Positions 47,401-53,400 of a stretch of DNA of 64,000 nt are shown piece after piece. Under the pieces are notes generated by a model. That model was not told where the DNA came from, did not search any database, and worked only from the letters and a program-made list of their open reading frames with translations. Source of the stretch: Ectocarpus siliculosus (lineage: Eukaryota > Sar > Phaeophyceae > Ectocarpales > Ectocarpaceae); contig FN648366.1 in assembly GCA_000310025.1 (NCBI GenBank), forward strand, positions 58,694 to 122,693, written 5' to 3'. A program made the translations under genes and the position numbers. Numbering within the stretch: the stretch's first letter is position 1; every line of letters starts with the position of its first letter.

Positions 47401-50400
47401 TCGGATCTCCCCTGGGGAGAGACATCTTCTACTGGCCCGACATGCCTAGGACGGATGCCGATGGCAACGAGGTATGGTGGTGCTGTCGGAATCCCTACGT
47501 CGGTCCTTTACGTTAGATCATGGACCCGTCTGCATGGATGGATGTGGCACAGCTCATGATCGTCGGCGTCTCTTCAGTGAGTGAACGTGTCAGGGTTCGT
47601 GACGAAGGGCAAGCCCTGTGGTAGATGCAGCTTTATTTTGTTTTCTTTCGAATTGCTTCATTATTTCTTCGGTTTCTAGGCTACGTGTTGGGGAGAGAGA
47701 CGCACGAAACGCTCATCGTCTCTCCGGCCGCGTTAGCTGCAAAGGCCGGCGTCAACTCTTACAAATCCATCTCTCTCCCCACAAATACTAGCCGGGGGAC
47801 TACGACTGCAAACGCAGGAGTCCCAAAACTGACCAAGTCCTCAAATGGTACACACCATTCTACAACACCTGACTAGATACCGAATATTCCCGAACTTATG
47901 CCCCCACCTTCGAAAGAAAAGGGATGGGAGGGCGGGATTTTCTAAACTGCCGCCGCTACTGCGTTAGGCGGCTGCTGCTGTCCTTCCGTTGCTTCACGCG
48001 CTCTGTAGCTGTCACACGTTACCCGACTTTGCTACAGCCCCTGCGTGGACTCGATCACGGAATGACACCCCCAACTATAGACTAATAATTCCAAACACCG
48101 TGACCCTGGGTTTCCGGTAGAAAATGAAGCCAAATTCTAATTCGACTGTTACAAAATAAACACCAGTTTATTCTATCTGCTTCGACGAACAAACCTTCCT
48201 TTTATTTTGTTTTCTTTCGAATTGCTTCATTATTTCTTCGGTTTCTAGGCTACGTGTTGGGGAGAGAGACGCACGAAACGCTCATCGTCTCTCCGGCCGC
48301 GTTAGCTGCAAAGGCCGGCGTCAACTCTTACAAATCCATCTCTCTCCCCACAAATACTAGCCGGGGGACTACGACTGCAAACGCAGGAGTCCCAAAACTG
48401 ACCAAGTCCTCAAATGGTACACACCATTCTACAACACCCACATCGAGGTCAGTTTCTGGACGACTACCGAATAAGTCAACTATCCGTTCCCCCAGACGGT
48501 CCCCTCCCCCGGCTGTCTCGATACGATCCTACTGCCGTCTGTAAGTTTCCGTGACACTCGCCGCGAATCCTCTACATTGTTTCGCGCGTACGGCTTGTAT
48601 GCATCCGACCTCCACTTCCCTTCTCTCTGAATCACTCGTTCTGCGATGTCTCCGCCCGATGCAAGAGCCGTCGCGCCTCCAATTCGCAACGAGTGCAACG
48701 CGTACTCCTGGGGGTTACGCCCCGACCTCGCTACCACTTCTCTGAGTGCACGGAGGGCAGCAGTATACCTCACTACTCTCACTGCTCTTCCACTACGGTA
48801 CGAAGCCAACGGTGCGGAGTCAGGGAACGTCGCATGACACGATAACAGCTCCACCACAAGAGCCACCGCGCCACCGCGTGCTCTCACACCTGACTGCGGT
48901 CCGGTGACTTCGTCTCGCGTACGAACCCGTATGTTTCCTTTCTGCTCTTGATCGGCCTTGTGCCCTCTAAACCTCATTTCGACACGGTCTGCTCTACGAT
49001 AGTGACTAAAGACTAATTGCGTCTCGCCAGCAAACAATGCTACGTCCGCCCTCGTAAGACAGTGTGCCTCATGCACCCTGCCCGCATCATTCGCGAACAC
49101 CTCATCAGACCGTGTGATAAAGAGATAGGACAAGCACAGACACAGCCACATCACTCTGCCCCCTTCCCCCCAGTTCTGGCTTGCGCTTTCCCCGTCCAGC
49201 AGCATACGCCAAGACACAGGCAGGCGCACACGGCGTACCGTCCCCACAGCCACGTGGTTCCTCGCAATCCCCCTTAGCGCACATTTCAACATCGGAGACG
49301 ACAAGTCTAGCTCGACAGAAGCTTCCAGCCTATGAAAATGTTGTACAGCCGTGAGTTTTCCGGATATTGTACTCGCTAGATTACCCTCAGACTCGAAACA
49401 CCAGGCTACGAAGTCTATCAACTCCCACACATGAAGGTCCCCGGCACGTTGCCCTACGAACTTGGGCTTCTCCGTCAGCCTGCGAAACGTGCACCAAGAG
49501 TTGAAGCCTGACGTGTAAGTCCTTCTAGACGAAGACGCAACTGAGTGCTCGACGAGCTGCATGCCAAGACGTCGGTAACAAAGTCCCGTCCTGCCTGTCC
49601 CAGGTCCTGAACCTGCTGATAGCCCTGGAGCCAACCTCGTGTAGACCGGCGTGCTGCCGTTCGATTTAGCCGCAGGTGCGCTGCCATCCGAGGTAGGCCC
49701 CCCCGCTACGCGGGAGAGCCCGCACCCCTATTTGTCTTTCCCGTGGGTGAAGAAGCCAGCGGCCTTGGGTCTCGCGCCGCCCTCGCCAGCGGCGCGCGCC
49801 TCTCCTCCGCGCCCTCCCCCGTTGCCGTGGCCAACGCCGCGCGCGCCGGTTGCCGGAGTTTCGGACGCTCCGCGCCTAGCGTGGGAAGGGTTCTGGGCGT
49901 GGATGTGTGGGCAGTTACGATCATGGCAACCGGACGACGAGTTGAAGGCGAAGCAGTAACCACGAGCGTGTCGAGCGATGCCGCCACTTTCTCTGTCACC
50001 AGGACGCCTTTGCGAAGCAAGGATTGCCACTCCATCTGCGACAGTTTTGAAACTGCCGGGGGCCGCCCCAGGATGAGCCACGCTTTTACCCGGCGGAGGT
50101 CCCCCCACATCCGCGCTCTATCCTTTGCCGTAGCCTTAGCCGCCTCGGCGCTGGGTGTAGCGGGGGCCCGAGAGGCCGATGGTGGGGCGGTTGTGCCCAC
50201 AAGTTGCACCCCCCCCCGGAAGGCCAGGTCCTGCTGCTTGGGTGGCGATCAGGTCGTCGATCGTTGCTTGAAGCTGCTGGCGATCACCGGCAGCCTCATC
50301 GCGCTTCCGCTGCAGCTCCTCCCTCAGGCCGTCCACCAGCCCGCGGAGAGAAGCGAGCTCAGTCTCATCAGCGGGGGGGTCGCCGCGGGTGCCTGTCCCT

Positions 50401-53400
50401 GGCGCTCGCGAGGAGGATACCGCTCGACGCCTCGCGGGAGTACGTGATCCGCTGCGCGTCGAGGGGCGAGCCGTCGAGCTCGCCACCGATCGCGCGGTAG
50501 ACCTCTCGTGCGTGGTGTCGAAGGTGTCGCCGCCCGACCTCGCCCTGCTTGCCCAGCCGCTGCCCTGCCGCTCCGCGTGGAGGCCCGTGTCGGCATCTGG
50601 TCGCGGTTGGAGTCGTATAAGCAGCGGACCGGCGGCAGGCGGCGGGCGAGCGTCAGGGCGGCGTTGCGGGAACACTTCTTTTCCTCTTCATCGTGGGCGT
50701 AGTCGATCGCGCGCCTGGATCTGCAGTTAGAATGGTCTACAAATCCTATCTTCGGGCGAAACTATCTGACGTGGGTTTTCGTCGGGCCCAGAACGACGCG
50801 TTGTTATATCGCGAGCTCGCGTTAGTTCATTCTCGACGCCTGTGGATTGAATGGAGTGATTATTGCTGCTGACGCTACGGTCACCGGACGTCGACCAATC
50901 CCGAATATTTCTCTCTTTGGAACACTAGCGATGGTTTCTCTTTTTTTTTTTTTTATATATATATTTTCTTGGATTCGGTGAACCCCGGTTCGCCATCGGC
51001 ACGGGTGCTTCCACTCATTGGCGCGTCCCGTGCTGATACGTGTTTTTTTTTTTTCGATGCGTTGGATACGGTGAACTCCACTTGCCAACAGCGCGGGTGC
51101 TTCCACTCATTGGCGCGTCCCTCGCTGAAACTGACAACACATATGCAGCACGGGTGCTTCCACTCATTGGCGCGACCCGCACTGATGATACTTGTACGCA
51201 GCGCGGGTGCTTCCACTCATTGGCGCGTCCCTTGCTGAAACTGACAACACATATGAGCACGGGTGCTTCCACTCATTGGCGCGTCCCGTACTGATACGTG
51301 TATGACTTCGTTTTCGATGCGTGGAGATCGGTTAATTCTACTCGCCCAACAGCACGGGTGCGCCCACTCATTGGCGCGTCCCGTACTGATACGTGTACGG
51401 CGTTTTTGTTCTTTCTTTTTGAGATCGGTTAACTCTACTCGCCAACAGCACTCATTGGCGCGTCCCTTGCTGAAACTGACAACACATATGCAGCACGGGT
51501 GCTTCCACTCATTGGCGCGTCCCGTACTGATACGTGTACGACTTCGTTTTCGATGCGTTGAATTCGGTTAACTCTACTCGCCAACAGCACGGGTGCGTCC
51601 ACTCATTGGCGCGTCCCGTGCTAATACGTGTACGGCGTTTTGTTCTTTCTTTTTTGAGATCGGTTAACTCTACTCGCCAACAGCACGAGTGCTTCCACTC
51701 GTTGGCGCGTCCCGTGCTGAGGCTGACAACACATATACAGCACGGGTGCTTCCACTCATTGGCGCGTCCCGTACTGATGCATGATTTGTGGTATTTTCCT
51801 ACCGCTGCGTTGAATTCGGTTAACTCTACTCGCCAACAGCGCGGGTGCTTCCACTCATTGGCGCATCCCGTGCTGATACATGTATGACTTCGTGTTTCGT
51901 TGCGTTGAGATCGGTTAACTTCCACTCGCCAACAGCACGGACGAGTGCTTCCACTATTGGCGCGTCCCGTGCTGGTGCGTGTCCTTGTTTTTTTTATTTT
52001 CATTGAGATCACTTCCGCATAGACAATCCTACGGCAGGTTGACGAGTTTTTGGCATGCATCAATTGCTGTCCGGGCGTTTTTGGTCGCTTAATCGTCGAT
52101 GGACGTGACGTATTCTTATAGAAGGTTTGTGTCACGGCGGCAATAAATTTGACGTGATGCCCCTCGAGACCGTGATGCACTCACATGGACCGCTACCTGA
52201 CGTTCCTCGCGAGTTCGAACCTCGCGTGTCATATCCACCTCCCCCCCCTATTTTTTTCTCATCTTCTTTTTCCTTATGCATACAGCACGTAGTTCGCTGT
52301 CTCGTTTTTTTTTTTCTCGTCTTCATTGTTTTTCAGTCTTTTTCTTTGAGTCTTTCTCTCGCATGCATGTGTTTTTGCTTTTATCCGTTCCCGTGAATGC
52401 TGTTGAATGCACTTTCCGATTACGTATGCGGCCGCTTTGTATGCCATGGGACTTGTCGATACCATCAGTGGGGACTTGTCAATACCATCCGTGGAGACGA
52501 TTGCTTACGTGAGTGGGCATATTATCGTCGATTCCTTCAGCTATATGCCCCTCTGTGCGCGGCACAGACAAGATTGTACCGGCAAGTAGTCCCTAGTAAG
52601 CCGGGGGAAACAGAAAACAAGGCACCTGCCTCATGTGCATAATCGTGACAGCATCATGCCCTACTGCCGCGGGTCGATTGGTTATGTCCGATGCCGCAGG
52701 GTTCCTCCACCCCGTGCAGTACAATGGCTGCTATCAACCGCGACAAGTCAGCGTGCGACCATACAACAGGCCCCGCTCTTTCTTTTTGCCGTTGAATTTT
52801 TTCTTCAGAGAGAGTACGTCTGGTTGGGACGAACCGCATTTTTTTTCTTCAGCGAGAGTACGTCTCGGTTGGGATGAACCGCATCCCATGTTTGGGAAGG
52901 GACCTATCTGAGCGGCGCGGCGAGCGAGACTGCGTTGGCTTGCCGCCGCTTATCTTACTGCACCCTCCCCCCTCGTGCTAAATGCACGCAGCGGTGAGGT
53001 CACAAGAGTAGCGGGACGCGAATAGGAACACGGCCGACACGATGGATGTTGGACACGAGTACACACCTTTATATGGAGAGTCGCGTGCTGGTCACTTCCC
53101 CAATGCTTGCGCCGTGTCCCGTCCCGCCCTTTTCTAAACTGCCGCCGCTACTGCGTTAGGCGGCTGCTGCTGTCCTTCCGTTGCTTCACGCGCTCTGTAG
53201 CTGTCACACGTTACCCGACTTTGCTACAGCCCCTGCGTGGACTCGATCACGGAATGACACCCCCAACTATAGACTAATAATTCCAAACACCGTGACCCTG
53301 GGTTTCCGGTAGAAAATGAAGCCAAATTCTAATTCGACTGTTACAAAATAAACACCAGTTTATTCTATCTGCTTCGACGAACAAACCTTCCTTTTCATTT

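What the first reader, a model, noticed from the sequence alone, without database searches (positions are those of the whole stretch)
47632..53395. Split-direct-repeat element with Gag and tyrosine recombinase but no visible reverse transcriptase
Seen: A1 - Gag-like - recombinase - B1 A2 B2 layout, with A copies (266 bp) and B copies (238 bp) apparently identical, and a recombinase with a complete catalytic set. Known: Ngaro/PAT/DIRS-type elements pair such repeats with RT-RNase H and a tyrosine recombinase. Here the 5.76-kb element seems to lack RT although its repeats look recent. It may be a non-autonomous lineage mobilised in trans that kept its own recombinase and Gag, or a different life cycle such as DNA circle mobility.
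Basis: partly seen in the sequence, partly recalled or inferred. Interest (0 to 1): 0.88.

Follow-up and report, generated by a model that had tools for sequence, protein, structure and literature searches.

The report
RT-deleted derivative of an Ngaro-like retrotransposon
The element is a stripped-down copy of an ordinary jumping gene of a brown-alga-like genome: it lost its copying enzyme, and it has probably multiplied with help from the few more complete relatives that sit in the same genome.

Summary
The layout is real: A1 - leader - tandem array - gag remnants - tyrosine recombinase (YR) - B1 A2 B2, minus strand, 47632-53395, with A1=A2 and B1=B2. There is no RT, but both ends of the RT-RNase H frame remain, joined at 49611-49616. 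The host genome holds 8 near-full RT-bearing copies (94-100% alike over 2 kb of RT-RH); five had their 3' flanks read, and their B repeats are 97.5-99% identical to the window's. Against one (C74) the window copy lacks about 511 and 84 bp of gag and 2,054 bp of RT-RH. The three junctions are identical in 19, 19 and 18 of 21 copies, so one deleted founder was amplified; the RT-RH junction occurs 104 times genome-wide. Best reading: a non-autonomous deletion derivative of an Ngaro-like YR retrotransposon, moved in trans (inferred). YR changes among RT-less copies show no purifying selection. Gag is broken, not kept. New member of a known kind; interest modest.

The parts
53130..53395 (-). A1, 5' repeat (266 bp)
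   Evidence: identical to A2
52011..53129 (-). 5' leader, shared with RT-bearing copies
   Evidence: a 31-mer at its 5' end occurs 122 times in the genome, also on the 5' side of RT loci on C74, C79, C156, C14, C27, C147; first 555 bases of the element 97.5% identical in C74
50900..52010 (-). array of ~95-bp imperfect tandem repeats, length varies between copies; also in C74
49728..50761 (-). gag remnants (frames 50136-50687, 49706-50248, 49728-50117; CCCH-like motif in the last, seen by eye), lacking about 511 bp (junction near 49964) and about 84 bp (junction near 49841-49837) against C74
49611..49727 (-). first ~39 codons of the RT-RNase H frame, now in frame with YR
   Evidence: alignment with the C74 copy L051
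49611..49616 (-). RT-RNase H deletion junction, 6-base microhomology; 2,054 bp missing against C74
   Evidence: 104 genome matches of the junction 30-mer
49478..49616 (-). last ~46 codons of RT-RNase H, in their own frame, with a stop behind them
   Evidence: tblastn, best E 3e-14 to P0095
48480..49727 (-). tyrosine recombinase frame (415 aa stop to stop; YR proper from about 49565)
48201..48438 (-). B1 repeat
47938..48203 (-). A2 repeat
47632..47869 (-). B2, 3' repeat

Best explanation
A non-autonomous deletion derivative of a Gag / RT-RNase H / YR retrotransposon of Ngaro-like structure. Shown: the window element equals an RT-bearing element of the same genome minus about 2 kb of RT-RNase H (6-base microhomology) and two pieces of gag; the same junctions recur in most of 21 near-identical copies at different sites; RT-bearing copies with nearly identical leader, repeats and YR exist in the same genome. 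Inferred: its RNA, made between A1 and B2, is packaged and copied by Gag and RT-RNase H supplied in trans by the fuller copies; the split repeats let the cDNA close into a circle, which a YR (its own or the partner's) inserts. Bases just before AGGAAGG vary between copies and no target-site duplication is evident by eye, as expected for YR insertion.
For: RT-RH C-terminal tail in the element; nearly the same B or B1A2B2 and end of YR beside 5 of the 20 RT loci whose 3' flanks were read; comparison with C74; 8 near-full RT copies at 94-100%, all 35 candidates scored; shared junctions 19, 19, 18 of 21; 104 junction places; distinct flanks; A1=A2 in 14 of the 20 elements that have both, B1=B2 in 19 of 21; YR and RT-RNase H folds.
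Against: No direct evidence of RNA-mediated movement or of supply in trans; no expression data. A usable Gag in trans rests on one 564-aa open frame that no Pfam model recognises. YR between window and C74 looks constrained (13 synonymous, 8 other changes), which could be read as YR still in use, though the RT-less copies among themselves show no constraint.
Confidence: 0.94

Rival explanations
1. The family now moves on its own as a DNA circle: its YR excises and reinserts it, as in Cryptons, and the split repeats are only relics.
For: 13 of 21 elements keep a 415-aa YR frame with both YR marker words, the catalytic residues are conserved, and YR marker words are found in all 21 elements.
Against: A1/A2 and B1/B2 stay identical in most copies (14 of 20, 19 of 21), as copying through the repeats would give; RT-bearing partners with nearly the same ends are present; distinct YR changes among RT-less copies are 3 synonymous to 19 not, near the neutral expectation (p 0.32).
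Confidence: 0.04
2. The copies are segmental duplications or assembly artefacts and not mobile insertions.
For: High identity; N runs inside L020 and L026.
Against: Flanks differ between the fetched places (by eye); 104 junction places over many contigs; array length varies between copies.
Confidence: 0.01
3. The deletion was favoured because it fuses the start of the RT-RNase H frame to YR and so changes YR expression.
For: In C74 the YR frame overlaps the end of RT-RH in another frame; in the window the first 39 codons of RT-RH run in frame into YR.
Against: No ATG in those 39 codons (by eye); L020 has another frame arrangement; no sign of selection on YR among the RT-less copies.
Confidence: 0.05

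Closest known systems
Ngaro-like elements of brown algae (Ectocarpus: 15 Ngaro families, PMC12477816, passages read)
   Same: YR retrotransposons of a brown-alga genome; the YR and RNase H relative P0013 is named Ectocarpus sp.
   Different: The passages I saw do not describe an RT-less derivative; the paper's supplements could not be read here
SIRE, the truncated non-autonomous form of VIPER in Trypanosoma cruzi (PMC6681497, passages read)
   Same: Non-autonomous derivative that keeps the ends of a split-direct-repeat YR element
   Different: SIRE keeps only the ends and a short internal piece; here YR is kept and RT-RNase H and parts of gag are gone
Dasheng and RIRE2 of rice (seen only as a title in the reference list of PMC9210276)
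   Same: Non-autonomous element with a putative autonomous partner in the same genome
   Different: LTR elements, no YR (recalled)

Membership tests
Ngaro-like YR retrotransposon | Split direct repeats A1 ... B1 A2 B2 with the internal repeats downstream of YR | tested here: met
   definition from PMC4157794 and PMC9210276 (passages)
Ngaro-like YR retrotransposon | Tyrosine recombinase | tested here: met
   catalytic columns; Cre as best fold match, E 6e-8
Ngaro-like YR retrotransposon | RT-RNase H | tested here: not met
   window copy: deleted, ends only. Partner L051: 768-aa frame, RVT_1 only at E 0.02, below cut-off; its relative P0095 folds as RT-RNase H, best E 4e-11
Ngaro-like YR retrotransposon | No methyltransferase domain (which would point to DIRS/PAT) | tested here: met
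   no Pfam methyltransferase in window frames or in L051 gag and RT-RH frames; divergent domains could be missed, as Pfam also missed the YR
Ngaro-like YR retrotransposon | RT/RH or YR phylogeny inside the Ngaro clade | not tested
   no reference Ngaro or PAT sequences at hand; PMC4157794 (passages) warns that structural features are homoplasious
Non-autonomous deletion derivative with an autonomous partner | Nearly the same ends as an RT-bearing element in the same genome | tested here: met
Non-autonomous deletion derivative with an autonomous partner | One set of deletion junctions shared by many copies at different sites | tested here: met
Non-autonomous deletion derivative with an autonomous partner | Movement by proteins supplied in trans | not testable with these tools
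   needs experiment
Crypton | YR element with no retroelement parts and no split direct repeats (definition recalled) | tested here: not met
   split repeats and RT-RNase H remnants present

The most novel reading that the evidence does not exclude
An RT-less YR lineage that has outlived its founder event: two subfamilies share the same RT-RNase H breakpoints but carry different gag deletions (window type, and the L053 type with about 950 bp lost), so the lineage has diversified and multiplied while keeping the YR region, perhaps because YR acts best on the element that encodes it.
Probability: 0.15. Interest if true: 0.45.

Novelty: new member of a known kind. Interest (0 to 1): 0.25.

Why it matters
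It explains an apparent RT-less retrotransposon without a new life cycle, and gives a clear pair of few RT-bearing copies and many deleted copies in one genome, in which trans-mobilisation of split-direct-repeat elements could be tested.

Tried and rejected
A new class of element (rejected: RT-bearing copies with nearly the same ends exist). A Crypton-like element (rejected: split repeats and RT-RNase H remnants). Intact Gag (rejected). One scan of viral contigs with the YR found no relative; the other viral scans were not used. Pfam gave no retroelement domain for the 5 window frames; of 5 YR relatives scanned, P0062 and P0070 match Phage_integrase and three match nothing; of 6 RT-RH relatives four have an RVT_1 match below its cut-off, a fifth, P0114, a weaker one, and P0077 none; so folds were used. 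The window YR and P0078 against PDB sequences: no match. A test of selection on YR gave different answers at two depths: 13 synonymous and 8 other codon changes against C74 in 362 codons (rough dN/dS 0.2, p 0.0003), but 3 and 19 distinct changes among RT-less copies (p 0.32); indels are not counted there, and 7 of 20 alignments had gaps. I read the first as the past of the fuller elements. A-to-A distances from 100 of 281 listed places gave 36 close pairs, none above 6.4 kb, but this list ended at contig C51 and did not show the RT-bearing copies, so it was no evidence of their absence.

Literature searches. In the titles and starts of abstracts listed I saw none that names this element; I read passages of four papers only (PMC12477816, PMC4157794, PMC6681497, PMC9210276), so I make no claim that it is unpublished.

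Full report
What is there. On the minus strand of 47632-53395 lies A1 (53395-53130), a leader (to 52011), an array of about 95-bp imperfect repeats (to 50900), gag-like frames (50761-49706), a 415-aa YR frame (49727-48480) and B1 A2 B2 (48438-47632). [quoted passage not shown] B1 and A2 overlap by 3 bases; 68 bases separate A2 from B2. The window lies in a 189-Mb genome of 492 contigs. The only hit of the YR search that bears an organism name is from Ectocarpus sp. (P0013), so I take the host to be a brown alga; this is inference.

Copies. The B1A2B2 unit was found in 40 of 40 scored places (448 candidates) over 806-808 of its 808 bases, at 100% as printed. I took 20 of these copies with flanks. 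They stand in different flanks (by eye; L011 lacks its 5' end at a contig edge, and L024 abuts a piece of another copy); the bases just before AGGAAGG vary, and no target-site duplication is evident by eye. L012 and L013 are shorter; L020 and L026 hold N runs. YR marker words were found in all 21 elements, and 13 of 21 have a 415-aa YR frame with both words. None of the 8 near-full RT places lies in the 20 fetched copies.

The lost RT. The YR relative P0013 carries a piece of RNase H before its YR (recognised from motifs that I recalled). A search with that piece gave 57 proteins, P0013 itself included, several of about 730 aa with RT and RNase H. Pfam sees RVT_1 only weakly, but the model of P0095 (pLDDT 85) matches RT-RNase H structures, best E 4e-11. 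The last 46 residues of these proteins are found by tblastn in the window element at 49615-49478, best E 3e-14, with a stop behind them. So the element once had RT-RNase H.

The partner. A search of the host genome with P0095 found 65 matches. I read the 3' flank of 20 of these loci (L040 was cut short by a contig end). In 5 of 20 (C74, C187, C79, C14, C156) the B repeat is 97.5-99% identical to the window's, and the last 190-odd bases of YR are 95-100% identical. The whole B1A2B2 unit is present in three of them, at 98% (C74), 99% (C156) and 93% (C79, which has an extra piece in A2); C187 and C14 matched over one B only. Of the other 15, some are sister families and five (L040, L041, L044, L045, L050) gave no match. 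The C74 copy (L051) has a 564-aa gag frame, a 768-aa RT-RNase H frame and YR. Against it the window element lacks about 511 and 84 bp in gag and 2,054 bp in RT-RNase H; the six bases GCAGGT stand at both sides of the last deletion. The three 40-base junctions are present in 19, 19 and 18 of 21 elements; L013 and L026 lack all three (L026 has an N run there), L017 lacks the last.

Numbers. DNA of the missing RT-RH region (2,031 bases): 8 near-full copies at 94-100%, C74 included, and one 289-base piece at 100%, then about 70% and less except short pieces; all 35 candidates were scored. Three of the 8 (C27, C147, C85) had no 3' flank read; C27 and C147 have the leader on their 5' side and the YR motif near. 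With up to 3 mismatches: RT-deletion junction 104, leader 122, YR motif 144, B1/A2 junction 121, A core 281 places (each lists only its first 100). Deleted copies thus outnumber near-full RT-bearing ones by roughly ten to one. The junction count includes a second type, 22 of the 100 listed, of which I read one (L053): same RT-RH breakpoints, 96% identity over the YR part, a different gag deletion of about 950 bp, and no A2 or B2 found behind its B.

Selection. Between the window YR and C74: 13 synonymous and 8 other codon changes in 362 codons, rough dN/dS 0.2. Among the RT-less copies: 22 distinct changes, 3 synonymous, 19 not, near the neutral expectation; one copy (L022) has lost the catalytic histidine, one (L024) has a stop. 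So the data do not show that YR is kept for use in RT-less copies; changes on young copies would look neutral in any case.

How it works. Shown: a single deleted founder was amplified at many sites while fuller relatives with nearly the same ends exist. Inferred: Gag and RT-RNase H come from those fuller copies; closing into a circle through the split repeats and insertion by YR follow the model for this class (recalled). YR may come from either. Of the near-full RT copies, C74 and C79 show an unbroken RT-RH match over residues 10-728 of the query; the others match in part or in pieces, or carry stops.

Filing. [quoted passage not shown] The phylogenetic test was not done. The window copy itself fails the RT test, so it is a derivative of such an element and not a full member. 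SIRE of T. cruzi (PMC6681497, passages) is a precedent for a non-autonomous form of a split-repeat element.

Noticed in passing
L053 (C10:4203300-4206300): Second RT-less subfamily with the same RT-RNase H breakpoints but a different, about 950-bp gag deletion; 22 of the 100 listed junction places carry its CAATCAG-type variant.
   Followed up: partly
L054-L058: Of 8 B1/A2 places chosen because no YR motif was listed near them, 5 lack most or all of YR and begin in B1 or shortly before it; they may be solo repeat units or truncated copies.
   Followed up: partly
L034, L035, L036, L037, L039, L042, L043, L045: 3' flanks of other RT-RNase H loci: seven of these eight have a direct-repeat pair of their own about 560-660 bases apart, L036 a tandem array; probably sister split-repeat families.
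   Followed up: no
C22:939486, C10:2008993, C12:1582268 (host genome): A-core repeats only 377, 452 and 569 bases apart, perhaps ladders of A and B units made by recombination between copies.
   Followed up: no
L024 (C57:82825-92824), 38-506: A piece of leader and A of another copy directly abuts B2 of this copy: nested or neighbouring insertion.
   Followed up: no
49611-49727 (-): The RT-RNase H deletion joins the first 39 codons of the RT-RNase H frame in frame to the YR frame.
   Followed up: partly
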